Source: Histidinibacterium aquaticum (lineage in GTDB: Bacteria > Pseudomonadota > Alphaproteobacteria > Rhodobacterales > Rhodobacteraceae). From it: a stretch of 33,184 nucleotides of DNA. The stretch covers positions 1 to 33,184 of the forward strand of contig NZ_VYQE01000009.1 in NCBI RefSeq assembly GCF_008710275.1, written 5' to 3'. A program made the position numbers and the translations under genes. The stretch's first letter is position 1. Every line of letters starts with the position of its first letter. Shown piece after piece: positions 363 to 30,937 of this stretch. The notes beneath the pieces are model-generated. The model saw only the letters and a program-made list of their open reading frames with translations. It had not been told where the DNA came from and did no database searches.

Positions 363-423
363 CGATGCTACTTCGCCGGTGGGGTGAACCGCCGAGTCAT
401 GCTGACCCTTCGCAGCCATGCCT

Positions 424-441
424 CATTGATGCCGGTCAATG
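424..441. promoter_or_regulatory. FNR/FixK-type box, perfect half-sites
   Basis: CATTGATGCCGGTCAATG: TTGA (426-429), six bases, TCAA (436-439), with the dyad extended by CA/TG on both sides. It lies between the divergent phosphotransferase-like gene (start 362) and the PRPP synthetase gene (start 474). TTGA-N6-TCAA is the known core of FNR, FixK, Dnr and NnrR sites. The distance to 362 (about 70 nt) suits activation of the minus-strand gene. For the plus-strand gene the box is close (about 41 nt from ATG). Confidence 0.6.
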
Positions 442-473
442 CCGTGCAGCGATCACCGGCGGAGCGTCGGTGT

Positions 474-1475
474 ATGCTGTTCTTCGTCCTCAACGGTTCG
501 GGCCTGCTCGGAAGCCGCATCGCAGCGGCCGGCGATTTCGACTGCGCGCCACACGAAGAGCGTGAATTTGCAGGTGGCGAGCACAAGGCACGACCGCTCG
601 TCAGCGTCCGAGACAGGGAAGTCGTTGTGTTTCACGAGCTTCACGCTGAAGAGGATGCCTCTGTTAATGACCGCCTGGTTCGTCTGCTGTTTTTCGTTTC
701 GACCTGCAAGCAGAACGGGGCACGCCGCGTCACCGCGCTCGCACCCTATCTTCCGTACTCCCGCAAGGACCGGCAGACCAAGTCCCGTGACCCTGTCACC
801 ACCAGATACGTTGCAGCGCTATTTGAGGCGGCTGGGGCCGATGCCGTCGTAACGCTCGACGTGCATACGAAGACCGCATTTCAGAACGCGTACCGGATTG
901 CCGCAATAGACCTTACCACGGTCGAGCTTTTTGCGGCCGACATCGCCGGACAAAGCGACAGTACGGAGATCGCTGTTGTTTCGCCGGATGGGGGCGGGAT
1001 CAAGCGGGCCGAGTTGGTGCGCAAGGCCGTCGAAAGGCGAGCCAATCGTCCGGTCGGTTTCGGCCTGATGGAAAAACGGCGTAGCGGAGGTGTCGTCTCG
1101 GGCTCGCTATTTGCCGGTGATGTTCAGGGACGGGTTGTTTACATCGTCGACGACATGATCTGCGGCGGACAGACAATCCACAGGGCGACGGATGCGATAC
1201 GAGCTCGCGGAGCGCGCCAGGTTCATGCGATTGCCGCCCACGGTCTGCTGGCAACTGGTGCAGCAGAGGTGCTCAATGGATGCGGGCTAGATAGTGTGAC
1301 GCTGACCGATAGTGTCGCGCCGCTGCCTGCTGCCGAGGCAGACGCGCTCGGTAGTAGGCTGAGGGTACTGACTGTGGCCCCGCTCATCGCGGGGACCTTG
1401 CGTGCCCTCGATGCCGGCACGGCGCTTTCGGACCTGCCGCCAGAGGTCTTTGTTCCCCGCCTCGTCCGTCCCTGA
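474..1475 (+). CDS. Divergent ribose-phosphate pyrophosphokinase (PRPP synthetase)
   Basis: This 333-residue protein would make PRPP from ribose 5-phosphate and ATP in the cytoplasm, feeding nucleotide and NAD metabolism. Visible family blocks, in order, are YSRKDRQTKSRDPVTTRYVA (ATP-site region), TLDVHTKTAF (catalytic-His region), SPDGGGIKRAELV, MEKRRSGG (flexible-loop Lys/Arg) and a PRPP-binding loop IVDDMICGGQT. The loop differs from the usual DDMIDTGGT. The N-terminus is also divergent, so this looks like the stress-island paralogue, not the housekeeping Prs. ATG 474 was chosen because GGAG lies 9 nt upstream and homology begins there; the longer open frame back to 246 has no family-like sequence. 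A perfect FNR-type box lies upstream. Confidence 0.85.
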   Translation: MLFFVLNGSGLLGSRIAAAGDFDCAPHEEREFAGGEHKARPLVSVRDREVVVFHELHAEEDASVNDRLVRLLFFVSTCKQNGARRVTALAPYLPYSRKDRQTKSRDPVTTRYVAALFEAAGADAVVTLDVHTKTAFQNAYRIAAIDLTTVELFAADIAGQSDSTEIAVVSPDGGGIKRAELVRKAVERRANRPVGFGLMEKRRSGGVVSGSLFAGDVQGRVVYIVDDMICGGQTIHRATDAIRARGARQVHAIAAHGLLATGAAEVLNGCGLDSVTLTDSVAPLPAAEADALGSRLRVLTVAPLIAGTLRALDAGTALSDLPPEVFVPRLVRP

Positions 1476-1566
1476 TGGCGCACGAAAATCGTCTTTTGGA
1501 TCAGCTCAGCTAGGGTCCCTTGCTCCGGTGCGATCACGGCGCTCATGCCTCGAAAGCTTTTCGCCC

Positions 1567-1700
1567 GGCTCTGTCAGAAGCACGGCTTGAGCGGGGCCGG
1601 GGACCGGCCTAGTCTTCCCAATGACTCGGCGAGCCCGTTCCACTACTTCCGGACCAGGCCCGAGATCATCCGTCTCTCGGTGATGCTCTACGTCCGGTTC
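1567..1700 (+). mobile_element. IS6-family remnant (left end and transposase start)
   Basis: GGCTCTGTCAGAAGCACGGC at 1567 looks like an IS6-type terminal repeat. It is followed from about 1614 by NDSASPFHYFRTRPEIIRL and SVMLYVRF, the conserved start of IS6/IS26-like transposases. After residue F at about 1700 the similarity stops abruptly, so only about 30 residues remain and no DDE core is present. The 3' part has been replaced by an alcohol dehydrogenase fragment. Confidence 0.7.
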
Positions 1701-1738
1701 GCACCGGGTAAATCCTGCTTACTTTCTCGCGAGCTTCA

Positions 1739-1930
1739 CAGGGCCCCTTCGTTCTTTGCGCCGCCGCAGGCGCGCGCCTCATTGGCGCGACGCGGATCAT
1801 CTCGGTCGAGACGCCGCCCGAGCGACAGGAGATGTCGCGGCGTCTCGCCGCAGATGAGGTGGTCGGTTTCGCCAAGGCCAATCCGATGGGCGAGATCATG
1901 CGCCTGACCGGTGATCGCGGTGCCGATGTG
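1739..1930 (+). pseudogene. Zinc-type alcohol dehydrogenase (MDR) fragment
   Basis: A 64-codon stretch reads QGPFVLCAAAGARLIGATRI, then ISVETPPERQEMSRRLAADE and VVGFAKANPMGEIMRLTGDRGADV. This is the nucleotide-binding (Rossmann) segment of medium-chain zinc alcohol dehydrogenases: the G-x-GxxG region, an acidic residue after the second strand, and the LGAD-like block. Start, zinc ligands and C-terminus are all missing, and no start codon or RBS fits. It lies directly after the IS6 remnant and is best read as debris of a deleted gene. Confidence 0.65.
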
Positions 1931-2004
1931 GCGCGCTGGAAACGTCCGTCGATCTGTCCTCCTTGGCGTATCCGGACCGTCTCAGGTGCGTCATACGGCG
2001 CTCA

Positions 2005-2018
2005 TTGACCGCCGTCAT
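2005..2018. promoter_or_regulatory. FNR/FixK-type box, one mismatch
   Basis: TTGA-CCGCCG-TCAT, extended as CATTGACCGCCGTCATTG, differs from TTGA-N6-TCAA at one base. Its centre is about 122 nt upstream of the PolX-like gene's ATG (2134). The left half CATTGA is identical to that of the two perfect sites. Assignment is by inspection only. Confidence 0.4.
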
Positions 2019-2133
2019 TGCCGCGCGACCGTGCCAGTGGCAGGCCGGCTTGCGCCGCCTTGGCAGGAACGCCGGAGAGCGGCGCGACACCTGGGCCGGG
2101 GCTTGATGGCTTGCGTCCCTTGGGAGGGCCACC

Positions 2134-3036
2134 ATGGCCGACAGTCCCGCTCAAACGGTCGGAGACGTGCCCGAAGAGAACAGGAAGATCGCGGCGCGCC
2201 TTCGTGAATACGCCGAACTGCTCGAGCAGCAGGGCGAGGACGGCTTTCGTGTCCGCGCCCACCGCAGCGCGGCGGCCTACCTCGATCGGTTGCAAGAGCC
2301 GCTCAGCGACCTGCTCGAGCGCGGTGGAACGGAGGCGCTGATCGGGCTGCCCGGGATTGGGCGCGCCATCGCCGCGGACATCGTGGAGATGCTGACGAGC
2401 GGCCGCTGGCGGCAACTCGATCGGTTGAAGGGGGAGGTCACCCCCGAGGCCCTTTTCCGAACCATTCCGGGGATTGGCGCGACGCTCGCCCATCGCATCG
2501 CGGGCGCGGGTGACATCGAGACACTCGAGGAATTGGAGATGGCGCTCAGGCTGGGTGACGCGCGGATCTCCGGCATCGGACCGCGGCGAAGACAGGCGAT
2601 CCTTGCCAGCCTGTCCGAGTGCCTGTCCCGCTTCCAGCGCGCGCCCCTGCAAGGACAGCCGCGCGAGGAGCCTCCGGTCAGTCTGCTGCTCGACGCCGAC
2701 GCGCTCTACCGCCGCAAGGCCGAGGCCGGGGAGCTGACCCGTATCGCTCCAAAGCGCTTCAATCCCGAGGGGCAGGCCTGGCTTCCGATCATGCATGCGC
2801 GTCGCGGCGACTGGCACTTGACGGTCTTGTTCTCGAATACCGCGCGGGCACACGAGTTGAACCGGACCCTGGACTGGGTCGTGATCTACTTCCACCGCGA
2901 CGGCGAGCCCGAGGCGCGCCGCACCATTGTCACCGAGCGGCGTGGACCGCTGAGGGGGCGGCGCGTCGTGCGGGGCAGGGAGAGTGAATGCGAGGCCCAT
3001 TACGCCGCACCGCCGGAAGCGCTGCGGGCCCAATAG
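2134..3036 (+). CDS. PolX-like helix-hairpin-helix DNA-binding protein
   Basis: 300 residues. Residues about 15-90 resemble the 8-kDa domain of family X DNA polymerases (NRKIAARLREYAELLEQQG). HhH motifs LIGLPGIGRAIA, FRTIPGIGATLA and ISGIGPRRRQAI follow. The C-terminal half (about 185-300) reads LLLDADALYRRK and WHLTVLFSNTARAHELN. I see no GS-x-RG/DxD nucleotidyltransferase signature and no PHP exonuclease domain, so this is a shortened relative, probably a DNA-binding or gap-recognition protein without polymerase chemistry. GGGAGG precedes the ATG by 7 nt. It is convergent with lon, with a candidate FNR-type box upstream. The domain call is solid; the role in DNA repair under stress is inferred. 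Confidence 0.75.
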   Translation: MADSPAQTVGDVPEENRKIAARLREYAELLEQQGEDGFRVRAHRSAAAYLDRLQEPLSDLLERGGTEALIGLPGIGRAIAADIVEMLTSGRWRQLDRLKGEVTPEALFRTIPGIGATLAHRIAGAGDIETLEELEMALRLGDARISGIGPRRRQAILASLSECLSRFQRAPLQGQPREEPPVSLLLDADALYRRKAEAGELTRIAPKRFNPEGQAWLPIMHARRGDWHLTVLFSNTARAHELNRTLDWVVIYFHRDGEPEARRTIVTERRGPLRGRRVVRGRESECEAHYAAPPEALRAQ

Positions 3037-3067
3037 TGCGCTGACGGTCGTCAAAGGTATCCCAGCG

Positions 3068-5436
<2,369 letters not shown>

Positions 5437-5440
<4 letters not shown>

Positions 5441-5853
5441 GCGTCACCTCCCGTCGCAATCGGCTCCAGCCGCAACATTAGGCAGCCGTCGCGGGTGGTG
5501 GAGCGGATCCGGTAGTTGCCGGGTGGCAGCGGGATGCGCCTCTCGAGACGACCGCGCGGCAGCTCCATTCGATGAATTCGTGCCCGCCGGAACTCGGGCG
5601 GCAGGCGGCGCTGGCCGGCGAGAACCAGCTCCGCATGTTCGATGCGGACCTCGACCATGTCCGGGTCGACCCCGGGGAGGACGGCCCAGACGTAGAGCAC
5701 TCCGTCCGCCTCCGCGATGTCGATCGGGGGTTCCCAGACCGCCCCGTGGCGACCCGGCGAGAGCGGGTAGGCTTGCCGGACCATCCGCTCTGCCTCTTCC
5801 ATGGCCGCGAGCGCCCTCAGGAACATGTCGTTCGCCGCGTCGCGCCGTTTCAT
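5437..5853 (-). CDS. Hsp20/alpha-crystallin small heat-shock protein
   Basis: 138 residues. ATP-independent holdase chaperone that keeps unfolding proteins soluble for refolding or degradation. The alpha-crystallin domain runs from about residue 40 (WEPPIDIAEADGVLYVWAVL, then PGVDPDMVEVRIEHAELVLAG) to the end, with a strand ending RIPLPPGNYRI. The typical C-terminal I-x-I tail is not obvious. Both junctions are 4-bp ATGA overlaps, with the PDZ protein upstream and lon downstream, so the three are almost certainly one transcript. Coupling a holdase directly to Lon suggests hand-off of clients for degradation (inference). Confidence 0.9.
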
Positions 5854-7349
5854 TCCGAACGCAGCGGCACAGCCACGAACATCCGCGATCCGTCGCGCAG
5901 GATCCCGAGGAGGACGCTTTCCCGGTCGTCGCTCAGCTCGGCGATGCGCGCGGTGAGATCGGCCATGTCCGAGATCGTGTCCCGGCCCACGCCAACGATT
6001 ACGTCGCCTTGCCGGAGCCCGGTGCGCTCCGCTGTGTTCCCGACCTCGGTCACGACGACCCCGGTCTGAACATTTGAAAAGCCCGGTTCCGCCGCGTCGA
6101 CGGGCGCGATGTTCCGGACGGTGACACCCAGTTCCTCGACGAGCACTCCGTCTTCAACAGCCGGCGGAACGGTGCCGGGCACCCCGGCCAAGGTTACTGG
6201 CACGTCCATCGGCTCACCGGCGCGGATGATCGCGATCTGACCCGCATGCCCGGGCGCAAGCGCGGCAACCCGCTCGGACAGGGCTTCGGGATCCGCGATG
6301 GAATTGCCGTCGAGCGCCACGATGACGTCACCCGCCAGAAGTCCCGCCTGCTCGGCCGGCGAACCCGTCGCCACGTCCGAGATGAGTGCGCCCTCAGTAC
6401 TCTCAAGCCCGAGCGCGCTTGCGATCCCATCTGAGACGGGCTGGACCGCCACTCCGAGCCACCCGCGCATGACCTGCCCGGCCGACTCGAGTTCCGAAAT
6501 GAGCTCCTGCGCCCGGTCGGCGGCAAGGGCATAGGCCGCGCCATCGTCGGGGCCCGCGCCGACGAGGATGCCGATAACCCGGCCATCCATTCCAACGACC
6601 GGCCCTCCGGGGCCTTCGGGGCCGAGGGGCAGTGCAATGCGCAGGAATTCGCCCGAGAGTCCGTCGCTTTCCTCTTCTCCAACAGCGGAGACGATGCCGT
6701 GGGTCACGACCGTTCCGACCCCGTCTGGAGCGGCGAAAGCCAGTATTATATCGCCTGCCTCGACGATGCCCGACTCCGCCCAGTCGAGCGCCGGGAGCGG
6801 CCCGCCCGCGTCGATCCGCAGGAGGGCCAAGTCCGTCTGGGCGTCTTGTCCCACGACTTGGGCATCGAAGCTGCGTCCGTCCGGAAGCGTCACCTGCGTC
6901 GTGCCGGGCGCGCCGAGCAGGCTCGCGCTCGTGGCGATCAGGCCGTCGGGGTCGACAACGAAGCCTGCGCCCTCCATCGCGACGCCGAAGCGGGCCAGAT
7001 CGGCCATGTCCTCCATACCAAGGATGTCTGGCATCTCGAATGGCGGTTGGGGTCCGTCGGTGCCGCCGAAGCGCCGCATCAGCTCATCCATTACCTCGGA
7101 GTCGTCGCCTGGCCGCAGGCGTTGATGCATGCCCCCTGCGGGCTCGGTCGCGACCCTAACGACGGATGGGGTGACCGCCGCTACGATTGGCGCGAAGCTG
7201 GTAACCGGGGCGGTGAGGAGGCTATCTTCGACGGTGCGCTCCTGTGCGGTCGCAGGACCCACCGTGACCATCGCCATGGCCGCGATGGCGGCAATCCCCG
7301 CTCGCATGGCCAGCCGCTTCTTCCCGACGTTCTTGCATCTGTAGGACAT
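5850..7349 (-). CDS. HtrA/Deg-like PDZ protein lacking catalytic residues
   Basis: 499 residues, exported: signal peptide MSYRCKNVGKKRLAMRAGIA plus a hydrophobic stretch ending GPATAQ. A trypsin-like fold follows (about 45-290), then two PDZ domains (about 305-390 and 415-499). The catalytic His position (normally TNNHVV) reads TSASLL and the nucleophile block (normally GNSGGP) reads EGPGGP; only the Asp (QTDLALLRI) remains. It should therefore be a pseudoprotease: a periplasmic peptide- or PDZ-ligand-binding chaperone or scaffold. ATG 7349 was chosen over longer starts because AGGAGG lies just upstream and a signal peptide begins there. It is first gene of the operon with hsp20 and lon. An FNR-type box lies about 105 nt upstream. 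The fold is sure; inactivity is inferred from the missing residues. Confidence 0.85.
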   Translation of the reverse strand: MSYRCKNVGKKRLAMRAGIAAIAAMAMVTVGPATAQERTVEDSLLTAPVTSFAPIVAAVTPSVVRVATEPAGGMHQRLRPGDDSEVMDELMRRFGGTDGPQPPFEMPDILGMEDMADLARFGVAMEGAGFVVDPDGLIATSASLLGAPGTTQVTLPDGRSFDAQVVGQDAQTDLALLRIDAGGPLPALDWAESGIVEAGDIILAFAAPDGVGTVVTHGIVSAVGEEESDGLSGEFLRIALPLGPEGPGGPVVGMDGRVIGILVGAGPDDGAAYALAADRAQELISELESAGQVMRGWLGVAVQPVSDGIASALGLESTEGALISDVATGSPAEQAGLLAGDVIVALDGNSIADPEALSERVAALAPGHAGQIAIIRAGEPMDVPVTLAGVPGTVPPAVEDGVLVEELGVTVRNIAPVDAAEPGFSNVQTGVVVTEVGNTAERTGLRQGDVIVGVGRDTISDMADLTARIAELSDDRESVLLGILRDGSRMFVAVPLRSE

Positions 7350-7448
7350 CTCGGACCTCCTGCTATGCATGCAGATTGCGGTTCGGTGGGCGCCTATTCG
7401 CCATCCCGCGCTCGCGGAGGACTCCAGCGCCGGTCCGCCTCGGCGGCA

Positions 7449-7462
7449 ATGACGGCCGTCAA
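7449..7462 (-). promoter_or_regulatory. FNR/FixK-type box, one mismatch
   Basis: On the minus strand GTTGACGGCCGTCATTG: TTGA-CGGCCG-TCAT, one base off TTGA-N6-TCAA. The centre is about 106 nt upstream of the HtrA-like start (7349). The central TGACGGCCGTCA is a perfect palindrome. It is close in sequence to the sites at 2005 and 9915, all sharing a CCGCCG- or CGGCCG-type core. Confidence 0.4.
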
Positions 7463-7559
7463 CGCGTGTCGGGGTCGCGCGCGCAAAGTGGGCGCGGCCG
7501 GGGCGAAGGACGCCCGCGCCCATCCGGAGACCTTGCAGCCTTCGCTGCCAAAGGCATCG

Positions 7560-7878
7560 GCCTCAACGGGGATGACCTGCGAACGCTCATTCGCGGCACC
7601 GACATTCTCGCCGACGCGGCCTCGATCACGCTGGGCAGATGGGGCAGCATTGGTGTCGTGGAGTGGCCCTATGAGGTTTCGGCGTTCGAATGAGGCGCGA
7701 CTTAGGACGTCGTGTCGTTCGCGAGACCGATCGAACTGGTGGACCCGTCGCCAATCTCGTGCGGGAGGCGGCCGAGCACACGGTGAGAGGCTTCGGGGAC
7801 GGCGCGAGCTCCGCTATGGCACACAATCAATGGCGGGCAGCGCAGGCCGGTTTGGAGGCCCGAACTGATCCATTCTGA
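7560..7878 (+). pseudogene. GroEL-like chaperonin, decayed N-terminal fragment
   Basis: Two frames together resemble the start of a divergent Hsp60. From 7571, DDLRTLIRGTDILADAASIT and LGRWGSIGVVEW match GroEL's [22 protein letters not shown] region. After the stop at 7691-7693, a second frame (7690-7878) gives VANLVREAAEHTVRGFGDGA, with SSAMA standing where GroEL has the AGDGTTTAT ATP-binding block. The usual GDGTTT reads GDGASS. Only about 100 of about 540 residues are left, with at least one frameshift, and the fragment ends before the SRPBCC gene. It probably marks a lost atypical chaperonin of the same stress island. Confidence 0.5.
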
Positions 7879-7947
7879 TTGGCCCTAATGCTCCGGCCGA
7901 CCTTTGCCGTCTCTTGGCAGGCTCGCGCCGGCACCGCGGACCTCGGA

Positions 7948-8427
7948 TCATGCGCTCAACTGGGAAGCCTCAAACCGTCCTCCACGAGCTGTCTCGCACG
8001 CAGCTTTCAACGCGGCGAGGCCCTGGTGGAGCGAGCGCTGGATAATGCTTTTCGTCCATCTCGGTGAGACGGTCGCGAGCGGACCCGAAAAAGACTCTTC
8101 AGTCTTGACGCTGGTCATAGCCCCAAGGTCTGCGAGCCAGTAAACGTGCCGCGCTTTGATCAGGGGAGCTCGGCCGCTCCATCCCAGCACGTAGGGAGGA
8201 TCAAATCGTTGAATCGTTGACTGGATACGGAGTCCTCCGGTGCTCCAGGTGAACTCGGCGCCGTATTTTGCCGGCCCGTCAATGCGAACCCGCGAGATCG
8301 CCTTGTTCCAGAATGGCCAACCGGAAATATCGGTCAGCCGATTCCAGACCTCGTCGATTGGAGCACGAATGAGAACGGTCGCGCTCGCCGAGGCGGGAGC
8401 CTTTCTGTCGATGTCAAAAGTGTTCAT
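7948..8427 (-). CDS. SRPBCC-family (polyketide cyclase/dehydrase-like) protein
   Basis: 159 residues with the START/Bet v1-like pattern: ASATVLIRAPIDEVWNRLTD, then ISGWPFWNKAISRVRIDGPA. A later FTW...FDPPYVLGWSGRAP strand pair follows, and a terminal helix SIIQRSLHQGLAALKAACE. Such proteins bind hydrophobic small molecules in a deep pocket; no catalytic residues can be assigned. The ATG at about 8427 fits where homology begins, while an in-frame start at 8538 would add 37 unrelated residues. It is transcribed away from the DUF1003 gene. Substrate unknown. Confidence 0.75.
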   Translation of the reverse strand: MNTFDIDRKAPASASATVLIRAPIDEVWNRLTDISGWPFWNKAISRVRIDGPAKYGAEFTWSTGGLRIQSTIQRFDPPYVLGWSGRAPLIKARHVYWLADLGAMTSVKTEESFSGPLATVSPRWTKSIIQRSLHQGLAALKAACETARGGRFEASQLSA

Positions 8428-8649
8428 GATGAATCCTCGCAAGATGTCGTCCACGGCCACCGGGCCACGAGTGGGCATCTGCTCGGAGTCGACGAAAGCC
8501 CTGGACGGAGGAGAATCTCGACCTCGCCGACCTTCCATTCAATGACCGCGATCAGTGAACGTGACCATGAGCCATTCCCCGCGCATGCAGTATCAAGACT
8601 TCGGAGGACGGGGACCGGTCCGACTACGTCCGCCTGAGCCTGCCCTTGA

Positions 8650-8663
8650 TTGCGCAGCGGCAA
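8650..8663. promoter_or_regulatory. FixK-type box TTGC-N6-GCAA
   Basis: TTGCGCAGCGGCAA is a perfect dyad of the form TTG(A/C)-N6-(T/G)CAA known for rhizobial FixK2. Its centre is about 104 nt upstream of the DUF1003 GTG start and it faces the divergent SRPBCC gene. It belongs to the same class as the TTGA-type sites here but uses C/G at the fourth position. Confidence 0.4.
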
Positions 8664-8760
8664 TACGGATCAGTATCGGTGTGATGTCGGCGATCGGGGC
8701 CAGTCGATTTCACGTTGCGACTGGCCTCACGGCTCGCCCAAAAAATAAGGAGGCACCTCG

Positions 8761-9459
8761 GTGGCGGAAGGCCCTGCATCTGCGGAGACGTCGGATAACC
8801 TCGAACGATGCGCGGTCTGCGGCTCGGAGAGAAATCAACTCGTTGCGCTTTCCTCGGTCAGGCCTTCCATATCCGCTCTCATCCGGGAAATGCATCCAGA
8901 GCTTCCGACGGACGCTCGCATCTGCCGAGCCGACCTGGCCCGGTTCCGCAGGCTCTATCTCGAAAACCTCCTGAAAGACGAACGCGGCCGTCTGAGCGAC
9001 CTGGACCGGGAAGTCCTGGAGAGCCTCGAGACCGGCCAACCTCTCTCCGCCGGGACCCGGCCGAGCCCTCCCGTCACCTTCGGAGAGGCCATGGCCGACA
9101 GGATCGCGAACTTCGGCGGCTCCTGGACCTTTCTCCTGGGCTTCCTGGCGACCGTCTTCACGTGGATGGTCGTCAATGTCGTAGGCGTGCTCGGCGGTGG
9201 TTTTGACCCCTATCCCTTCATTCTTCTCAATCTGGTCTTGTCGTGTCTGGCCGCCATCCAGGCGCCGGTGATCATGATGAGCCAGCGCCGGCAGGAAGCC
9301 AAAGACAGGCAGCGATCAGAGAGCGACTACCAGGTAAACCTAAAGGCTGAATTGGAGATCCGCGCTCTTCATGAGAAACTGGATCACCAATGGGATCAGC
9401 TCGTGCGGATCCAGCAGGCTCAGATCGAGCTGATGGAAGATGCGTTAGAGCAGCGATGA
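8761..9459 (+). CDS. DUF1003 membrane protein with N-terminal CxxC
   Basis: 232 residues from a GTG start with AAGGAGG upstream. The N-terminal part carries CAVC (Cys17, Cys20) and ARIC (Cys55), a possible small metal site. The DUF1003 core begins FGEAMADRIANFGGSWTFLL. Two membrane helices (about 115-140 and 147-172) flank FDPYPFILLNLVLS, followed by IMMSQRRQEAKDR and a charged coiled C-terminus (ELEIRALHEKLDHQWDQLV). It is an inner-membrane protein of unknown function; family members are often near stress genes. It is followed by a perfect 13-bp hairpin and preceded by a FixK-type box, so it is probably a single-gene unit. Confidence 0.85.
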   Translation: MAEGPASAETSDNLERCAVCGSERNQLVALSSVRPSISALIREMHPELPTDARICRADLARFRRLYLENLLKDERGRLSDLDREVLESLETGQPLSAGTRPSPPVTFGEAMADRIANFGGSWTFLLGFLATVFTWMVVNVVGVLGGGFDPYPFILLNLVLSCLAAIQAPVIMMSQRRQEAKDRQRSESDYQVNLKAELEIRALHEKLDHQWDQLVRIQQAQIELMEDALEQR

Positions 9460-9504
9460 ACGCCTGGACGCCTGTCTCGGCGTCTGACCGGCGGTTGCGG
9501 GACG

Positions 9505-9547
9505 GGAGGAAGATGGAACTGTCAGGGTCCTTGGTCCATCTTCCTCC
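9505..9547 (+). terminator. Long perfect hairpin after DUF1003 gene
   Basis: GGAGGAAGATGGA (9505-9517) pairs perfectly with TCCATCTTCCTCC (9535-9547) around a 17-nt loop, 46 nt after the stop. There is no strong U-run, so it may be a weak terminator or an mRNA-stabilising stem. Confidence 0.55.
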
Positions 9548-9610
9548 TTCGCTGTAAGCCCATTGCCCCCTACCTGAGACCAGACAGCCAAGTGCCAGAC
9601 GAAGCGCTCC

Positions 9611-9850
9611 ATGAGCTGCCTCATCCGTCGCGACGTCCACACCGTCCATCCCATCGGCTGGCTGCGCGCGGCAGTCCTCGGAGTCAATGACGGGCTCGTC
9701 TCCACCGCGAGCCCGGTGGCGGGGATGGGTGCCTCGGGTGCCGCGAAGCCAGAGGCATTGCTTGCTGGTCTCGCGGACCCGGTCGGCAGCTCGATGTCCC
9801 CGCGACCGAGAATACGTCTCCGTCGGCATCGGTGCGCGCGTGATCAAGGC
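9611..9850 (+). pseudogene. VIT1/CCC1-type transporter remnant
   Basis: HPIGWLRAAVLGVNDGLVST followed by ASPVAGMGASGAAKPEALLA and GLADPVGSSMS matches the conserved start of VIT/CCC1 iron/manganese transporters (first membrane helix with GxNDGxVST). A frameshift then puts REYVSVGIGA in another frame, where the family has the GEYVSV motif after the second helix. Only the first two helices are recognisable and the rest is gone before 9900. Non-functional. Confidence 0.6.
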
Positions 9851-9914
9851 GGGGCGGGTCGCCGGACGCGCGCCGCGAAGCGTCACCGGCTTTAGACCCA
9901 AATCGAGCGCCCGA

Positions 9915-9928
9915 TTGTCCGCCGTCAA
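9915..9928 (+). promoter_or_regulatory. FNR/FixK-type box, one mismatch
   Basis: TTGT-CCGCCG-TCAA, one base from TTGA-N6-TCAA. Its centre is about 62 nt upstream of the cytochrome ATG (9984). Class II activation (about -41.5) would place the transcript start near 9963, giving a 20-nt leader that just holds the RBS. This is the best-spaced of the imperfect sites. Confidence 0.45.
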
Positions 9929-9983
9929 CGCACGTCGAGGCGTTCGGCGGAGAATGACTACCGGTCGACTCAGGGGTGTGACG

Positions 9984-10331
9984 ATGCGGCAAATACTGTC
10001 CCGAACCCTGCTGGCATTGCTACCCGCGACTGCCACGCCGGCGTTCGCCCAGATGCTTCACGGGGTTCACGAGGGGTTGGGTATTCCCTGTGCGGCTTGC
10101 CACACAGAAGAGCCGCCCTCGGACCCGACGCCGACCGCGACCTGCGTCGCCTGTCACGGCACGATGATAGGCCCGCTCGCGGGAGAAGACCTCCGTTGGC
10201 CAGACCCCCATCGGTCGCCGCATCTCGGCCCAGCGGAGGTGCCGGTTTGCAGCGAGTGCCACAGCGTGCACGGGAGATCGGAGGATACCTGTTCCGTGTG
10301 CCACCGCAGTTTTGGGTTCGAAATGGAATGA
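9984..10331 (+). CDS. Periplasmic tetraheme cytochrome c (c3-like)
   Basis: 115 residues with signal peptide MRQILSRTLLALLPATATPA ending FAQ. Four CxxCH haem sites are visible: CAACH, CVACH, CSECH and CSVCH, with extra His residues (MLHGVHEG, DPHRSPHLG) as distal ligands. This matches small tetraheme cytochromes that supply electrons to periplasmic flavoprotein reductases. The flavoprotein gene starts 43 nt downstream with its own RBS, so the pair is one operon, equivalent to a split flavocytochrome c. ATG 9984 gives a clean signal peptide. It is preceded by a candidate FNR-type box, which fits anaerobic electron transfer. Confidence 0.85.
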   Translation: MRQILSRTLLALLPATATPAFAQMLHGVHEGLGIPCAACHTEEPPSDPTPTATCVACHGTMIGPLAGEDLRWPDPHRSPHLGPAEVPVCSECHSVHGRSEDTCSVCHRSFGFEME

Positions 10332-10374
10332 CCGGGCGATCACCCTTCGCCTGTGCGCTATCGAGGAGGATAGT

Positions 10375-11847
10375 ATGACTATGTCAAGCAAGCCCGGCCT
10401 TACCCGCCGGAGTGTCCTGGGAAGTGTCGGAGCCGGCGTGGGCGCCTTCGGGTTGGCTGGCGCTTCAGTGGTCGAAGCGAGCCTCTTGCCGGAGCCCGAG
10501 CGGATGGAGAGCTTCGACGTCGTCGTGGTCGGCTCGGGCATGGCGGGCTGCGCGGCTGCGCTACAGGCGTCGGAGTCGGGCGCCCGCGTTGTGCTCCTGG
10601 AGAAGCTCGACGAGAACCGCATGGGCGGCAACTCGCTTCTGGCGGGAGGCAGCTACTCCGTTCCGCTCGGGACATCCCAGGCGGCGCGGGACGACTATGT
10701 CGCCGACTATGTGAGCTACTGTCTCGGGCGCGGCAACGAGACGATCTTTCGTCTGATGGCCGAGCACATCCATGGTGACCTCGATTGGCTGGGCAGCCGC
10801 GGGGTCGAACTTCTGGCGGCCGAGGAACGGCCGCCCAACAGGGTCGCGACGGTCCAGACCGCGCCGGCCGCCTTCGCGGGGATGCCGCGTGCCTTCCGCA
10901 CGCTCAAGGGCGTCCTGTCGGAGGCGGGCGTGGCCCTCATGTTCGAGACCAAGGCCCGGCAACTGATCATGGACGAGAGCGGAGCCGTCGTCGGCGTGCG
11001 AGCCTTGGGTGCAGACGGCGTGGCAGACTACCTTGGGCGGGCGGTCGTTATCGCGACCGGGGGCTATGCCGCCAACAGCCAGATCCTGGAGGGCTATTCC
11101 GATCCGAATGCCGGGGCGATGATGGTCCGTGGCGTCAAGAGCGCCACGGGCGACGGGCATGTCATGGCACAAGCGGCCGGAGCGGGCCTGAAGGGCATGG
11201 GAGGGCTGATGGCGCTCCACGTCGCAGCTGTCGACGGGATCGAGACTGCGGCCGGCCAACCGGCGCGGGTCGTCCCCTACGCAATCAGCATCAATCAGGA
11301 CGGCAGGCGTTTCGTGGATGAATCCCGGGGCTACGTGGCCCACGGTAAGGCGGTTCTGGAACAGCCCGGGCAGGCCACCTCGCTGATCTTCGACCAGGCT
11401 CTGCGCGAGAGCGTGGCGGAAGGCGTCATCGGCACGTTCGAGCGGCTCGGCCGGCCATTCCATCAGGCCAACACGCTGGAGGACCTGGCCGAGCTGGTGG
11501 GGGCACCCGTGGACGAGTTCGTACGGACCGTCGAGAACTTCAATGCCGCTGTCGAGGATGGCGCCGCGCCGGGGGCAAACCCGCCCAAAGCAAAGCTCGC
11601 CAACCGGATCGAAACGCCGCCCTTCTACGCCTTCAGCCCGCTTGTCCCGGGCGTCACGTTGACCTTCGGGGCGGTGATGATCGACGCGGATGCCCGGGTA
11701 CTCGAGCCTGACGGCAGGGTCGTCCCCGGCCTCTATGCCGCGGGAGAGGGAGCCGGCCCGGTCTTCTTCCATGACTACATCGGTGGCGGAGCGCTCACCA
11801 ACTGCCTGGTCATGGGACGGATCGCCGGGCGCAACGCGTCCGCCTGA
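10375..11847 (+). CDS. Tat-exported FAD flavoprotein (fumarate reductase/TcuA/KstD-like)
   Basis: 490 residues. A Tat signal (TRRSVLGSVGAGVGAFGLAG) is followed by FAD-binding VVVVGSGMAGCAAALQASES, the family block GGNSLLAGGSYS, GRAVVIATGGYAAN, SINQDGRRFVDES and a C-terminal AAGEGAG...IGGGALTNCLVMGRIAG. The fumarate-reductase His/Arg signatures (HHTMGG and HG-x-NRLGG) are absent: the region reads GVTLTFGAV and FHDYIGGG. That is closer to tricarballylate dehydrogenase or 3-ketosteroid dehydrogenase-like enzymes, so fumarate is unlikely to be the substrate. GAGGAGGA lies 4 nt before ATG 10375. With the tetraheme cytochrome it probably forms a periplasmic electron-transfer pair that reduces or oxidises an unknown unsaturated acid. 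Confidence 0.8.
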   Translation: MTMSSKPGLTRRSVLGSVGAGVGAFGLAGASVVEASLLPEPERMESFDVVVVGSGMAGCAAALQASESGARVVLLEKLDENRMGGNSLLAGGSYSVPLGTSQAARDDYVADYVSYCLGRGNETIFRLMAEHIHGDLDWLGSRGVELLAAEERPPNRVATVQTAPAAFAGMPRAFRTLKGVLSEAGVALMFETKARQLIMDESGAVVGVRALGADGVADYLGRAVVIATGGYAANSQILEGYSDPNAGAMMVRGVKSATGDGHVMAQAAGAGLKGMGGLMALHVAAVDGIETAAGQPARVVPYAISINQDGRRFVDESRGYVAHGKAVLEQPGQATSLIFDQALRESVAEGVIGTFERLGRPFHQANTLEDLAELVGAPVDEFVRTVENFNAAVEDGAAPGANPPKAKLANRIETPPFYAFSPLVPGVTLTFGAVMIDADARVLEPDGRVVPGLYAAGEGAGPVFFHDYIGGGALTNCLVMGRIAGRNASA

Positions 11848-11855
11848 GCACCGCC

Positions 11856-11879
11856 GCTGCCCGGCATTGTTCGGGCAGC
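11856..11879. terminator. Bidirectional hairpin between convergent genes
   Basis: GCTGCCCG (11856-11863) pairs with CGGGCAGC (11872-11879) around GCATTGTT. It sits between the flavoprotein stop (11847) and the P-type ATPase stop (11912), where a shared terminator is expected. Confidence 0.6.
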
Positions 11880-11911
11880 CTGCAAGAACGGGACGAAAAG
11901 GGCCATGCCCC

Positions 11912-14611
11912 TCACCCCCGCCGAAACGCAAGGCGCATCTGTTTCTCGATCTCGATCAGGGCGAAGAAGACCGTACCGATTCCGACCACGAGCAGGCCGT
12001 CGCGCAGTGGCACGCTCTGCGTTCCGAAGATGGCCTGGAGGGGCGGCAAGTAGGTGACAGCGAATTGGGCGACAGTGACCGCGACCACGCAGGCCCAGAT
12101 GACGCGCGTTCCCCGGACCGCAGCCCAGGTCAGTGACGTGCCATAGATGTTGCGGATGAAGAAGAGGTAGAAGATCTGCAACACCACAAGCGTGTTCATG
12201 GCCAGCGTCTGAGCCAGCGCTACCGCATAGCCCTTGTCGAGCGCGTAGGAGAACACGCCAAAGACCGCCGCAAGGACGAGCGCCGCCACCAGGCCGATCT
12301 GCCAGACGAGCGCACCGGTGAGCAGGGGCTCGTCCCGGGGGCGGGGCGGGCGCCGCATCGTGCCGGGTTCCGAGGGTTCGAAGGCGAGCGCGAGGCCCAG
12401 AGTGATACCGGTGATCAGGTTCACCCACAGGATCTGGACCGGGGTTATCGGCAGCGCCATGCCGGCGAAGAGCGCCACGACAATCGTCGTCGCCTCGCCC
12501 GCGTTGGTCGGCAGGGTCCAACTGATCACCTTCTTGATGTTGTCGTAGACAGTGCGCCCCTCGCGCACCGCCGCCGCGATGGAGGCGAAGTTGTCGTCGG
12601 CCAGCACGACCTCGGCCGCCTCCTTTGCCGCCTCACTGCCCTTCAGGCCCATTGCGATGCCGGTATCGGCCCGCTTGAGCGCCGGGGCATCGTTCACGCC
12701 GTCTCCGGTCATTGCCACGGTGAGGCCGCGTGACTGGAGGGCAGTGACAAGCCGCAGCTTGTGGGCCGGAGAGGTGCGCGCGAAGATGTCGGTCTCCACC
12801 GCCGCATCCGCGAGGCCGGGGTCCTCCATGCCGTCGAGGTCCGCGCCGGTCAAAACCCGGTCGTGGTTCTTCAGACCGATCATGCCGGCGATCGCACGCG
12901 CTGTGGCAGCGTGGTCACCGGTGATCATCTTCACGCGGATACCGGCTTCGTGGCATTCCGCCACGGCCTCGATGGCCTCCTTTCGCGGTGGATCGAGCAG
13001 GCCGATCAGGCCGATCATCGTGAGCTGTCCGGCGAGGTCGGCAGTCCCGAGCGTGGATTGCTCTCCCGCCAGGGACCGCGAGGCCACGGCGATGACCCGC
13101 TCGCCACTGGCCGCGAGGCTTTCGACCATGTGGTGCCAGTGATCGGGGTCGAGCATCTCCGAACCGCCATGGGCGGCGCGTTGGTTCCCGCAGAGCGCCA
13201 GCACCGCTTCGGGCGCACCCTTGACGTGGATGCAGGCCTGGCCCTCCTCGTCGTGGTGCAGGACCGCCATGTAGCGATGTGCGGCGTCGAAGGGGATGGC
13301 GTCGGCGCGGGTCCATTGGCTAAAGGGCTCGGCGCCCTCACCGGTGATCTTGCCGGCGAGGGCCATCAGCGCACCTTCCATTGGGTCGCCCTCGACATGC
13401 CAGCCGGCTTCGTGAGCATGCAGCATCGCGTCGTTGCAGAGCCCCGCGGCGCGGGCGAATTCCATCAGCACGGTATGTTCGTCGGGATCGGCATCTGCCT
13501 CACGCCAGCGCACGGCGCCTTCCGGAGAGTAGCCGTTGCCACCGACGGAATAGAGGTGCTCGGCGGCGGCCAGCGACGCGGCCATCATCTCGTTCCGGGT
13601 CAGGGTGCCGGTCTTGTCGGAACAAATCACTGAGACCGAGCCCAGCGTCTCGATCGCCGGCAGGCGGCGGACGATGGCGTTCCGCCGCGCCATGGCCTGC
13701 ACACCCACGGCCAGCGTGATGGTCAGGACCGCCGGCAGGCCCTCCGGAATCGCCGCGACCGAGAGGCCGACGACTGCCATGAAGAGCTCCCCGAAGGGCA
13801 GGTCGCCGACGAAGTAGCCGTAGGCCAGCAATGCGCCTGCGACGATCAGGATGAAAACGGTGAGCCAGCGGGCGAACCTGTCCATCTCGGCGACGAGTGG
13901 CGTTGTCAATGTCTCGACGCTCGAGAGCATTCCGCTGACGCGGCCGATCTCTGTCTCGGGGCCGGTGGCGGTCACAACCCCGCGCCCGGCCCCGGCCGCG
14001 ACGAGCGTGCCAGAGAACAGCATGGACGTCTGATCCCCCAGCGAGGCATCTGGAGCGACTGGCGTTGCGCCCTTGTCCACGGGAACGGACTCGCCCGTCA
14101 GGATCGCCTCCTCGATCCTCAGCCCACGCGCCTCGATCACGCGCAGATCGGCGGGCACGCGGTCGCCGGCCTCCACCAGTACCAGATCGCCAGGGACGAG
14201 ATCGGTTGCCTCCACGCCGATACGTCTGCCGTTGCGCAAGACGGCCGCCCGCGGCGCGAGCATGCCCTGGATGGCATCCATCGCCTTCTCGGCGCGACCT
14301 TCCTGAATATAGCCGATCGCCGCGTTGCCAATCACGACCGCGAGGATCACGCCGGTATCGACCCAATGCTGCAACAGCGCAGTCACGGCAGCCGCGGCGA
14401 TCAAGACGTAGATCAGCACGTTGTGGAAGTGCGCAACGAAGCGGAGGATGGGGCTGCGCCTCGGCGGCTCCGGCAGGCGGTTCGGCCCGCTCTCGGCAAG
14501 GCGGCGGGCGGCCTCGGCCGAGGTCAGTCCGTCAAGCGGTGCAGAGAGGGCCTCCATGACTGTTTCGACTGGCCGGTCATGAAACGCCCGCGATGTATGG
14601 GTCCCCGTCAT
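11912..14611 (-). CDS. P2-type cation-transporting ATPase
   Basis: About 899 residues in the inner membrane; it pumps a cation using ATP. The N-terminal cation-ATPase domain opens with a SA...GLTSAEAARRL pattern. The actuator motif is ILTGESVPV, the M4 motif is AAIPEGLPAVLTITLAVG, the phosphorylation site is Asp332 in SDKTGTLT, and the hinge is MTGDGVNDAPALKRADTGIA. A C-terminal bundle of membrane helices (INLITGITLGLALAFEP region onward) completes it. PEGL in M4 and the length place it with the Ca2+/Na+/K+-like P2 group (PMR1/PacL type), not heavy-metal P1B. Ion identity cannot be read safely. ATG 14611 (MTGTHTS) is preferred because an AGGA lies just before it; 14629 is possible. A perfect FNR-type box lies in the divergent region shared with the stress protein gene. 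Confidence 0.88.
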   Translation of the reverse strand: MTGTHTSRAFHDRPVETVMEALSAPLDGLTSAEAARRLAESGPNRLPEPPRRSPILRFVAHFHNVLIYVLIAAAAVTALLQHWVDTGVILAVVIGNAAIGYIQEGRAEKAMDAIQGMLAPRAAVLRNGRRIGVEATDLVPGDLVLVEAGDRVPADLRVIEARGLRIEEAILTGESVPVDKGATPVAPDASLGDQTSMLFSGTLVAAGAGRGVVTATGPETEIGRVSGMLSSVETLTTPLVAEMDRFARWLTVFILIVAGALLAYGYFVGDLPFGELFMAVVGLSVAAIPEGLPAVLTITLAVGVQAMARRNAIVRRLPAIETLGSVSVICSDKTGTLTRNEMMAASLAAAEHLYSVGGNGYSPEGAVRWREADADPDEHTVLMEFARAAGLCNDAMLHAHEAGWHVEGDPMEGALMALAGKITGEGAEPFSQWTRADAIPFDAAHRYMAVLHHDEEGQACIHVKGAPEAVLALCGNQRAAHGGSEMLDPDHWHHMVESLAASGERVIAVASRSLAGEQSTLGTADLAGQLTMIGLIGLLDPPRKEAIEAVAECHEAGIRVKMITGDHAATARAIAGMIGLKNHDRVLTGADLDGMEDPGLADAAVETDIFARTSPAHKLRLVTALQSRGLTVAMTGDGVNDAPALKRADTGIAMGLKGSEAAKEAAEVVLADDNFASIAAAVREGRTVYDNIKKVISWTLPTNAGEATTIVVALFAGMALPITPVQILWVNLITGITLGLALAFEPSEPGTMRRPPRPRDEPLLTGALVWQIGLVAALVLAAVFGVFSYALDKGYAVALAQTLAMNTLVVLQIFYLFFIRNIYGTSLTWAAVRGTRVIWACVVAVTVAQFAVTYLPPLQAIFGTQSVPLRDGLLVVGIGTVFFALIEIEKQMRLAFRRG

Positions 14612-14780
14612 TCCTGTCACTCTTGGCATGGCACGTATAGTACAGGCCCGGTCTGTGGTCTCTCGACTTCGGTTAGCGGCGTTCGCCCTCAGCGACGATA
14701 ACTGTGCTGTCGGGCAAATGGTAAGAGGGTCCACTCAGCGCTGTGGTCGAACCCGTGATCCAAGAGTTCGCCGTGAATGC

Positions 14781-14798
14781 CATTGAGGACGATCAATG
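14781..14798. promoter_or_regulatory. FNR/FixK-type box, perfect half-sites
   Basis: CATTGAGGACGATCAATG: TTGA (14783-14786), GGACGA, TCAA (14793-14796), with the same CA/TG extension as the site at 424-441. It lies 73 nt (centre) from the stress-protein ATG (14863) and 178 nt from the ATPase start. Spacing suits class II activation of the plus-strand gene, with a transcript start near 14831. Confidence 0.6.
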
Positions 14799-14862: not shown

Positions 14863-15429
14863 ATGCCCTATGTTCAAGGGGACCACGTCATCAAGGAGGC
14901 TGTGGCCGTCTTCGACGCCCCCGACGATCTGTTCGCCGCCATCGACGCGATCCGCAATGCCGGGTTCTCCCGTGCCGATATCAGTGTCCTGGCCGACGAG
15001 AAGGCGATCGAGGCGAAGCTGCACGATGCTTTCTGGAAGGCCGAGGAGCTTGAGGACAACCCGGAGGCGCCCCGCCGCGCCTACATATCGGAAGAAGCCT
15101 TCGGTGCCGCCGAAGGGGCACTGATCGGTGCGCCACTCTACGTGGGCGCCTTCATCGCGCTCGGCGCCATCGCGGCCCCCGCCTTGCCCCTCTCTGCGGC
15201 GGTCGCAGCCCTGGTGGTGGGCGGCGGCGCAGGCGCGGGGTTGGGTGCCTTGTTGGCAAAGCGCGTCGGTGACCGCCATGCCGAGTACCTGAAGAACCAG
15301 GTCCGCCACGGCGGCCTGATCCTATGGGTCCGCACAGACAGCGACGAGAAGGAGAAGAAGGCACTGGCGGTTCTGAACGGGCTTTCCGCGCACGACGTGC
15401 ACCTGAACGATTGGGTGCCTGACTCCTGA
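14863..15429 (+). CDS. General-stress-type membrane-associated protein
   Basis: 188 residues. The N-terminal part (VIKEAVAVFDAPDDLFAAID, then AIRNAGFSRADISVLADEKA) resembles the YflT/general stress protein 17M fold. A hydrophobic glycine/alanine-rich segment follows (about 85-135, GAPLYVGAFIALGAIAAPAL...GGGAGAGLGALL), then a second alpha/beta stretch HGGLILWVRTDSDEKEKKAL. The Gly-rich hairpin may insert in membrane. No catalytic motif is seen and function is unknown. GAGGAGA lies before the ATG. It diverges from the P-type ATPase across a perfect FNR-type box, so oxygen-limited induction is likely (inference). Confidence 0.7.
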   Translation: MPYVQGDHVIKEAVAVFDAPDDLFAAIDAIRNAGFSRADISVLADEKAIEAKLHDAFWKAEELEDNPEAPRRAYISEEAFGAAEGALIGAPLYVGAFIALGAIAAPALPLSAAVAALVVGGGAGAGLGALLAKRVGDRHAEYLKNQVRHGGLILWVRTDSDEKEKKALAVLNGLSAHDVHLNDWVPDS

Positions 15430-30139: not shown

Positions 30140-30937
30140 ATGCTGATTGATACCAAGGCTGCCCCGAAGCCCTCACTACCTTGCCTGAAATTCCTGGAGC
30201 ATCGCCTCGGAATTTGTGGTCCGATCGATGCAGAGGCAGTCCGTGCCCTTGCCAGCCGAGCACGTGTTGCACGCTTTTTTCGCGGTGCGACGATCTTCGC
30301 GCAGGGCGGTCCCTCCGACCGGATCGGGATTATCGGGTCTGGGGTCGTCAAGGTAGTCTACCTGTCGTCCGACGGGACAGAACACGTGCTGAGCCTGCTC
30401 TCCCCGGGAGATGTCGTAGGTGAATTGACCGCCGAATACCGGATGTCTTTCGAGGCAGCCACCGATGTTACCTTGTGCTTGATGGAGCGCGATAGCTTTG
30501 AAGTTCTTCTGTCAGCGCACGGTTCGCTGCTTGCCGGATACCTGGCTACAATCTCGGCACAGCTGCAGAAGGAACGTCTTTGGGCATCTTCAATGCGAAG
30601 CAAGGGGTCGTTGCAGCGCGTGGCGGAATGGCTGCTGTCTCAGGCCCCGGAGGCTCGCGATCTGCCTGAGACGGTCATCCATATCTGGCTCTCGCGGCGA
30701 GACCTCGCCTCCATGCTCGATATGACGTCAGAAACGCTGTGCCGCACGCTCCAGGCGATCAAGAAATCAAACGCGATCCGCATGCTGGCCCCAGACCAGG
30801 TCGCGATCCTCGACCGAAAGAGGCTGCGAGCAATCGCGGATGGTGTGCGGGTTGATGCTGCGGGTGGCCGAAAGTTGGACCTGACCTCCAACACTCATCG
30901 TCAGCATCGCCAGCCTGGCGAGCAGCCAATCAGCTAA
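30140..30937 (+). CDS. Crp/Fnr-family transcription regulator
   Basis: 265 residues. cNMP-like sensor domain (about 30-130: FRGATIFAQGGPSDRIGIIG, LLSPGDVVGELTAEYRMSFE), dimerisation helix, then HTH (about 187-208: DLASMLDMTSETLCRTLQAI). The recognition helix keeps E and R of the FNR-type E-x-x-S-R but has Cys201 in place of Ser. Cys15 and Cys26 near the N-terminus plus Cys113 are fewer than the four ligands of classical FNR, so an O2-labile 4Fe-4S cluster is uncertain; a FixK/Dnr-like or redox-Cys sensor is possible. It could read the TTGA-N6-TCAA boxes of this window. A C-terminal extension rich in His/Gln follows residue 235. Start ATG 30140; no strong SD. Confidence 0.85.
   Translation: MLIDTKAAPKPSLPCLKFLEHRLGICGPIDAEAVRALASRARVARFFRGATIFAQGGPSDRIGIIGSGVVKVVYLSSDGTEHVLSLLSPGDVVGELTAEYRMSFEAATDVTLCLMERDSFEVLLSAHGSLLAGYLATISAQLQKERLWASSMRSKGSLQRVAEWLLSQAPEARDLPETVIHIWLSRRDLASMLDMTSETLCRTLQAIKKSNAIRMLAPDQVAILDRKRLRAIADGVRVDAAGGRKLDLTSNTHRQHRQPGEQPIS

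What the first reader, a model, noticed from the sequence alone, without database searches (positions are those of the whole stretch)
424..14798. Six FNR/FixK-type boxes tie the left half into one regulon
Sites at 426-439 and 14783-14796 are perfect TTGA-N6-TCAA, both extended to CATTGA-N6-TCAATG. One-mismatch sites occur at 2005, 7449 and 9915, and a TTGC-N6-GCAA dyad at 8650. All are intergenic, about 40-180 nt before a start codon, and together they cover the PRPP synthetase, PolX-like, HtrA-like/hsp20/lon, DUF1003, cytochrome/flavoprotein and ATPase/stress units. I found none upstream of genes right of 15 kb. This suggests an oxygen- or NO-regulated survival island instead of a random collection.
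Basis: partly seen in the sequence, partly recalled or inferred. Interest (0 to 1): 0.75.

Follow-up and report, generated by a model that had tools for sequence, protein, structure and literature searches.

The report
FNR-type low-oxygen stress regulon island
A bacterium carries two separate clusters of stress-survival genes whose promoters share the same docking site for an FNR-type, probably oxygen-sensing, genetic switch; it looks like a new member of a known kind of low-oxygen survival regulon.

Summary
Five of the six reported boxes hold up; the sixth (TTGC dyad, 8650) does not. The window is contig C11 of a 3.9-Mb genome. It shares its boxes with a second stress island on contig C6, beside an FNR-like gene with CX2CX7C plus a central Cys. 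The shared operator is a 20-bp palindrome, GCATTGAC-GGCC-GTCAATGC. CATTGACN4GTCAATG (<=2 mismatches) occurs 19 times genome-wide, control 0: 10 in C6, 5 in the window, one of these before the window's Crp/FNR gene. In Roseovarius confluentis both gene sets lie in one island with conserved boxes. Gene families and box type match known FixK2/FnrN/FnrL low-oxygen stress regulons. Best reading: an accessory FNR-controlled low-oxygen survival regulon split over two loci. The acting regulator and the O2/NO response are inferred, not shown.

The parts
424..441 (+). extended FNR-type box CATTGATGCCGGTCAATG, centre 41.5 nt before the PRPP synthetase ATG (474)
   Evidence: matrix 22.2; genome-wide list; box at the same spacing (40.5-42.5 nt) in 7 of 28 other loci
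474..1475 (+). PRPP synthetase (ribose-phosphate pyrophosphokinase), island type
   Evidence: PF13793, PF14572, PF00156; 12 of 393 other family genomes at E<=1e-60
2003..2020 (+). extended box CATTGACCGCCGTCATTG before the HHH/PolX-N-like gene
   Evidence: matrix 25.9; box before the HHH homologue in 2 of 2 loci that have one
2134..3036 (+). helix-hairpin-helix protein resembling the N-terminal part of PolX
   Evidence: PF14716 HHH_8
3041..3054 (+). box-like CTGACGGTCGTCAA between converging gene ends; function doubtful
   Evidence: matrix 15.8
3068..5440 (-). Lon-type protease (second Lon)
   Evidence: by sequence; 64-69% identical over the parts compared in Roseovarius and 62% in L126
5437..5853 (-). 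Hsp20-type small heat-shock protein
   Evidence: PF00011
5850..7349 (-). HtrA/Deg-type protease with two PDZ domains; start chosen at ATG 7349
   Evidence: PF13365, PF13180
7447..7464 (-). extended box CGTTGACGGCCGTCATTG before the htrA-hsp20-lon unit
   Evidence: matrix 24.3; genome-wide list
   Evidence: matrix 18.2
8650..8663 (.). TTGC-N6-GCAA dyad before the DUF1003 gene; not supported as a member
   Evidence: matrix 2.8
9915..9928 (-). box TTGACGGCGGACAA (reverse strand) before the cytochrome c/flavoprotein pair
   Evidence: matrix 20.9
9984..11847 (+). c3-type cytochrome (9984-10331) and periplasmic FAD reductase (10375-11847)
   Evidence: PF14537, PF00890; closest solved chains are flavocytochrome c3 fumarate reductase and urocanate reductase
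11912..14734 (-). cation-transporting P-type ATPase
   Evidence: by sequence; homologue 38% in Roseovarius preceded by two box-like sites
14781..14798 (+). extended box CATTGAGGACGATCAATG between the P-ATPase and a stress-type gene
   Evidence: perfect TTGAN6TCAA; matrix 15.9; genome-wide list
14863..15429 (+). small membrane-type protein of unknown function; start chosen at ATG 14863
   Evidence: only a sub-threshold ActD match; homologue 44% in island L125
30025..30042 (+). extended box CTGTGACCCAAGTCAATG before the Crp/FNR gene
   Evidence: genome-wide list; matrix only 6.8
30140..30937 (+). Crp/FNR-family regulator, helix ETLCR, Cys1, Cys3 and central Cys kept, Cys2 replaced by Phe
   Evidence: PF00027, PF13545; alignment

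Best explanation
The boxes are operators of an FNR-type activator and tie the window's left half and a second island on contig C6 into one accessory low-oxygen survival regulon: chaperones, proteases, PRPP synthesis, a cation P-ATPase, an alternative periplasmic reductase, and USP and CBS proteins. Shown here by sequence: a shared, non-random, intergenic operator, found again before homologous genes in relatives. Inferred: when oxygen falls (NO not excluded), the C6 FNR-like protein holds its [4Fe-4S] cluster, dimerises, binds the operator and activates these promoters; the window and C4 paralogues, which lack one cluster cysteine, modulate this or read another signal.
For: C6-trained matrix finds the window sites, 5 at >=18 vs 0.03 in shuffles. 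7 of 7 top sites intergenic. CATTGACN4GTCAATG (<=2 mismatches): 19 genome-wide vs 0 control, 15 of 19 in the two islands. CATTGACSGCSGTCAATG (<=2 mismatches): 7 of 7 in the two islands, and 8 of 8 of Roseovarius in its island. Both gene sets united in Roseovarius with 12 perfect boxes in 42 kb vs 0.38 in shuffles. 35 of 65 homologue-locus pairs with a box upstream vs 5.9% background. C6 regulator has CX2CX7C plus a central Cys. Published relatives: FixK2, FnrN and FnrL control such genes through such boxes (PMC9104804, PMC11784457, PMC5398030; passages).
Against: No expression or binding data. The 8650 dyad fails. Box 30025 scores only 6.8 on the matrix. Several PRPPS islands in relatives lack boxes: 3 of 12 unnamed family neighbourhoods have no perfect box, and 6 of 13 PRPPS homologues have none upstream. 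The extended box with <=1 mismatch occurs in 163 of 394 family genomes, most of them without this regulator. Islands L107 and L108 use the same box with other FNR-like proteins. The Maritimibacter locus has the regulator type but no box >=12.
Confidence: 0.72

Rival explanations
1. The boxes are sites of the housekeeping FnrL (contig C7); the island regulators add little.
For: FnrL has the same CX2CX7C set and a TTGA-reading-type helix ETVSR. Published FnrL controls USP genes directly in Dinoroseobacter (PMC5398030, passages). Islands without the ETLCR regulator carry the same box.
Against: Four FnrL-like sites of this genome give TTGATCCGGATCAA without the CA/TG flanks, the islands give TTGACGGCCGTCAA with them (small and partly matrix-chosen samples). 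Five of five ETLCR regulators with CX2CX7C sit inside box-bearing islands.
Confidence: 0.35
2. The regulator is a NO-sensing Dnr/NnrR-type protein and the island serves denitrification or NO stress.
For: The window also encodes an Rrf2 regulator and a globin-family protein; Dnr-type boxes are alike (PMC5398030, passage).
Against: The C6 protein has the four FNR-type cysteines, which Dnr proteins lack (recalled). No denitrification genes were seen in the window or in the C6 stretch.
Confidence: 0.15
3. The boxes are chance matches or left-over palindromes without function.
For: Half or more of the <=1-mismatch sites are in coding DNA or right of 15 kb; the 8650 dyad fails; 3041 has no obvious target.
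Against: Independent matrix, genome-wide control of 0 against 19, top seven sites intergenic, boxes before homologues in relatives.
Confidence: 0.04

Closest known systems
FixK2 low-oxygen regulon of Bradyrhizobium diazoefficiens (GroEL5, HspC2, USP, host-attachment protein near bll4634-blr4654; operon bll3117-bll3116-bll3115 with PRPP synthetase bll3116)
   Same: Same gene families (GroEL, Hsp20, USP, host-attachment protein, PRPP synthetase, CBS) and TTGA-N6-TCAA-type boxes before them; fold changes in a fixK2 mutant (PMC9104804 table passage; PMC6515984 table passages).
   Different: FixK2 lacks an Fe-S cluster (recalled); here the neighbouring regulator has FNR-type cysteines and the operator is a longer palindrome with conserved flanks.
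FnrN-controlled small heat-shock protein of Rhizobium leguminosarum
   Same: Hsp20 gene with an anaerobox, about 50-fold microaerobic induction dependent on FnrN (PMC11784457, passages).
   Different: Single gene studied, not an island.
FnrL regulons of Dinoroseobacter shibae and Rhodobacter sphaeroides
   Same: Related bacteria; FnrL has an Fe-S cluster and directly controls USP genes (PMC5398030, PMC2908626; passages).
   Different: Consensus TTGAT-N4-ATCAA; I saw no Hsp20-Lon-HtrA-PRPPS island in the passages read.
DosR hypoxia/dormancy regulon of mycobacteria
   Same: Works alike by gene content (Hsp20, USPs, CBS protein, P-ATPase; content recalled). The C6 CBS protein's best solved match is Rv2626c (1y5h).
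   Different: DosR is a response regulator with another operator (recalled); not a member.

Membership tests
FNR/FixK-type operator (anaerobox) | TTGA-N6-TCAA palindrome, intergenic, upstream of the gene, above chance | tested here: met
FNR/FixK-type operator (anaerobox) | conserved before homologous genes in relatives | tested here: met
   35 of 65 homologue-locus pairs vs 5.9% background; 14 of 23 for window genes; dropped before the count: alignments starting after residue 45 and self-matches; 2 of the 65 pairs lie in C6, on which the matrix was trained
FNR/FixK-type operator (anaerobox) | bound and used for low-oxygen activation | not testable with these tools
   needs binding and expression data
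FNR subfamily (C6 regulator) | three N-terminal cluster cysteines plus a central cysteine | tested here: met
   CX2CX7C and Cys115, aligned with FnrL of C7
FNR subfamily (C6 regulator) | E-(x)-x-S-R recognition helix | tested here: inconclusive
   ETLCR instead of ET[IV]SR: Glu and Arg kept, Ser replaced by Cys; meaning of the positions recalled
FNR subfamily (window regulator 30140-30937) | complete set of four cluster cysteines | tested here: not met
   Cys2 is Phe in the window and C4 proteins and Tyr in Maritimibacter
DosR regulon | DosR-type (LuxR-family) response regulator and its operator | tested here: not met
   the C6 response regulator is Response_reg plus Trans_reg_C, OmpR-type; the operator is FNR-type

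The most novel reading that the evidence does not exclude
A portable low-oxygen survival island of Rhodobacteraceae-type bacteria that travels with its own FNR lineage (ETLCR recognition helix) and its own 20-bp operator GCATTGACGGCCGTCAATGC, partly insulated from the housekeeping FnrL. After splitting over several loci it has spawned paralogous regulators (window, C4, Maritimibacter) in which the second cluster cysteine became aromatic; these could carry a three-cysteine Fe-S cluster with an open iron site and read a signal other than oxygen.
Probability: 0.2. Interest if true: 0.7.

Novelty: new member of a known kind. Interest (0 to 1): 0.45.

Why it matters
It shows that a seemingly random collection of stress genes forms one regulon, and gives a longer operator that predicts further members in related genomes. 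It links PRPP synthesis and protein quality control to FNR-type control outside rhizobia. It also offers a natural series of FNR paralogues (four, then three cluster cysteines) for testing how cluster ligation changes the signal that is read.

Tried and rejected
The TTGC-N6-GCAA dyad at 8650 was rejected as a member (score 2.8), although the published FixK2 consensus TTGA/C-N6-T/GCAA (PMC9104804, passage) would formally admit it.

That the extended box marks only genomes with the ETLCR regulator was rejected: CATTGACN4GTCAATG with <=1 mismatch occurs in 163 of 394 family genomes, whereas 4 of 394, own included, have the regulator at E<=1e-25. The stricter CATTGACSGCSGTCAATG (<=2 mismatches) does separate groups (forward counts, 62 genomes): nine genomes (own, Roseovarius, the three with PRPPS of 60% identity or more, the three with ETLCR regulators, and G657) have 35 sites; nine genomes with more distant PRPPS have 2; 44 controls have 20 (17 of 44 with at least one, maximum 3); the backwards control has 4 in all 62. 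G657 had been chosen because it showed clustered boxes, so it is not independent; the controls were a run of listed handles, not a random draw.

A leaderless PRPPS mRNA was considered because the box centre lies 41.5 nt before the ATG. It is not claimed: the window has GGAG 10-13 nt before the ATG, which argues for a leader.

The named-genome search with the three-paralogue alignment gave only two loci; of these Maritimibacter has no box >=12.

Searches for a printed description of this island listed only related systems among papers I looked into; the library lacks most subscription papers.

Full report
WHAT WAS CHECKED. The window is the whole contig C11 (33,184 b) of a 3.9-Mb, 11-contig genome. 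The two perfect TTGAN6TCAA sites are at 426 and 14783; dinucleotide shuffles give a mean of 0.15. The one-mismatch sites at 2005, 7449 and 9915 exist, among 18 such sites with 5.57 expected.

A SECOND ISLAND IN THE SAME GENOME. A genome-wide scan found 29 perfect TTGAN6TCAA sites (16 for the pattern read backwards); eight lie within 8.3 kb of contig C6, and 7 of the 8 perfect TTGACN4GTCAA sites of the genome are there. Around them lie USPs, a GroEL, an APH/AAA kinase, EF-hand, SPW, DUF2267, CBS, host-attachment/baeRF12, Hsp20, a phosphoribosyltransferase, a response regulator and a hybrid histidine kinase, a Crp/FNR gene and a BON protein (the GroEL name is from reading the sequence, the CBS name). 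The window's sites at 2005, 7449 and 9915 are each one letter from the C6 type TTGACNGCNGTCAA.

INDEPENDENT TEST. A 20-position matrix made from 13 C6 sites, with no window DNA, gives in the window 2005 25.9, 7449 24.3, 426 22.2, 9915 20.9, 8542 18.2, 14783 15.9 and 3041 15.8. Five reach >=18 (shuffle mean 0.03) and seven reach >=15.5 (0.105); 0 of 200 shuffles reach either count. The 78 kb fetched from C1, C4, C5 and C7 has none >=15.5. All seven lie outside coding sequence on my gene map, which leaves 16.9% of bases 1-15000. The site 8542 is new; 3041 sits between two converging gene ends and may have no function.

THE OPERATOR IS LONGER THAN REPORTED. The consensus in the window, C6, Roseovarius and further islands is close to GCATTGAC-GGCC-GTCAATGC; four FnrL-like sites of the genome give TTGATCCGGATCAA without these flanks (both strands were counted, so the consensus is symmetric by construction, and most sites were picked by the matrix). 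CATTGACN4GTCAATG with <=2 mismatches occurs 19 times in the genome against 0 backwards: 10 in C6, 5 in the window (424, 2003, 7447, 14781, 30025) and 4 elsewhere. With the core fixed (CATTGACSGCSGTCAATG, <=2 mismatches) 7 of 7 sites of the genome are in the two islands, and 8 of 8 of Roseovarius confluentis are on its island contig between 184 and 212 kb.

RELATIVES. In Roseovarius confluentis (L061, L104, L105) counterparts of the window set (HHH, Hsp20-Lon, P-ATPase, PRPPS) and of the C6 set lie in one locus with boxes: 12 perfect TTGAN6TCAA in 42 kb, shuffles 0.38. Island-type PRPPS (E<=1e-60) is found in 12 of 393 other family genomes, so the island is patchy; 9 of those 12 neighbourhoods hold at least one perfect box and 3 hold none. 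Of 65 homologue-locus pairs 35 have a box (matrix >=13 or perfect) from 300 nt upstream to 20 nt inside the expected start, against 5.9% of random 320-nt windows; for window genes 14 of 23 (some genes are counted under two queries, alignments starting after residue 45 were dropped, among them the P-ATPase). In more distant alphaproteobacteria 6 of 15 island-type PRPPS genes have a <=1-mismatch box within 250 nt, against 0 of 13 weaker PRPPS relatives (the 28 genomes with a match at E<=1e-40 come from 385 searched). In 7 of 28 other loci the box centre is 40.5-42.5 nt before an ATG of PRPPS, as in the window (41.5); 16 of the 28 have a <=1-mismatch box in the stretch scanned.

THE REGULATOR. 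The C6 FNR-like protein has CX2CX7C and a central Cys like the FnrL-type protein of C7. The Roseovarius relative keeps all four. The three relatives found by protein search in 393 other family genomes keep CX2CX7C and the helix ETLCR, lie near a response-regulator/kinase pair, and have one to six boxes >=13 in the 20 kb fetched (their central Cys was not checked). The window protein at 30140-30937 and the C4 paralogue have Phe in place of Cys2, Maritimibacter has Tyr. Which protein acts on the window boxes is not shown: islands L107 and L108 carry the same box with other FNR-like proteins.

HOW IT MOST LIKELY WORKS. At low oxygen the C6 FNR-like dimer binds the operator and recruits RNA polymerase at stress promoters. 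The products keep proteins folded (Hsp20, GroEL) or degrade them (HtrA, Lon), keep up PRPP and cation balance, bind adenylates (USP, CBS) and provide an alternative periplasmic reductase (the flavoprotein is closest to flavocytochrome c3 fumarate reductase and urocanate reductase). Shown: operator, positions, conservation, gene content. Inferred: activation, signal, regulator, physiological role.

KNOWN OR NEW. In Bradyrhizobium, FixK2 affects GroEL5, HspC2, a USP, a host-attachment protein and the operon bll3117-bll3116-bll3115, with such boxes listed before them (PMC9104804, table passage), and bll3116 is a microoxia-induced PRPP synthetase (PMC6515984, table passage). FnrN drives a small heat-shock protein in Rhizobium (PMC11784457, passages); FnrL drives USP genes in Dinoroseobacter (PMC5398030, passages); in Sphingopyxis the Fnr box is TTGAc/t-N4-g/aTCAA and uspA has one at -41.5 (PMC7713065, passages); predicted FNR and FixK regulons of alphaproteobacteria include USP, Hsp20, CBS and a heavy-metal P-ATPase (PMC2908626, table passages). 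So I file this as a new member of a known kind. The longer operator, the ETLCR lineage and the split into two loci are features I met in none of the passages read. By gene content it resembles the DosR dormancy regulon (content recalled; the C6 CBS protein best matches Rv2626c), but it is not a member.

LIMITS. There are no expression or binding data. Gene starts are my choices. Relatives are unnamed except two. That the genome belongs to Rhodobacteraceae or its neighbours is inferred from the two named hits.

Noticed in passing
window 27535-28757; C4:80567-81789 (L057:14567-15789): The FAD oxidoreductase stretch is 93.5% identical in DNA to a copy on contig C4, where weaker similarity also links the EF-hand/SPW and Crp/FNR parts: a duplicated and rearranged segment.
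   Followed up: partly
window 30140-30937; L001:1369-2106; L062:9869-10744: Three FNR-like paralogues have an aromatic residue (F, F, Y) at the place of the second cluster cysteine but keep the other three.
   Followed up: partly
window 426-474; also L061, L106, L107, L108, L075, L077, L078: Box centre 40.5-42.5 nt before the PRPP synthetase ATG. Class II placement would then mean a leaderless mRNA, yet the window has GGAG before the ATG. Unexplained.
   Followed up: partly
L055:10913, L055:19539, L107:6767: Box variants beginning ATGACNGC read as M-T-A-V-N/F in open frames, so ORF callers may start genes inside the operator.
   Followed up: no
window 99-419: A 106-aa frame that by eye resembles the N-terminus of the APH/AAA kinases of these islands, apparently truncated (no Pfam match); in Roseovarius an APH/AAA-type gene is divergent from PRPPS across the box.
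   Followed up: partly
window 9611-9895: Short frame that by recall looks like a VIT1/CCC1-type fragment; not tested.
   Followed up: no
window 19548-20681, 24230-24649, 24737-25195; L127: HPP, Rrf2 and globin homologues (69%, 82%, 74%) lie in genome G657 beside box-bearing BON, SPW and baeRF12 genes, so the right half may belong to the same gene pool. G657 was chosen for its boxes.
   Followed up: partly
window 26444-26872: C-terminal part of an IS21-type IstB gene (PF01695 positions 157-237), a mobile-element remnant in the right half.
   Followed up: no
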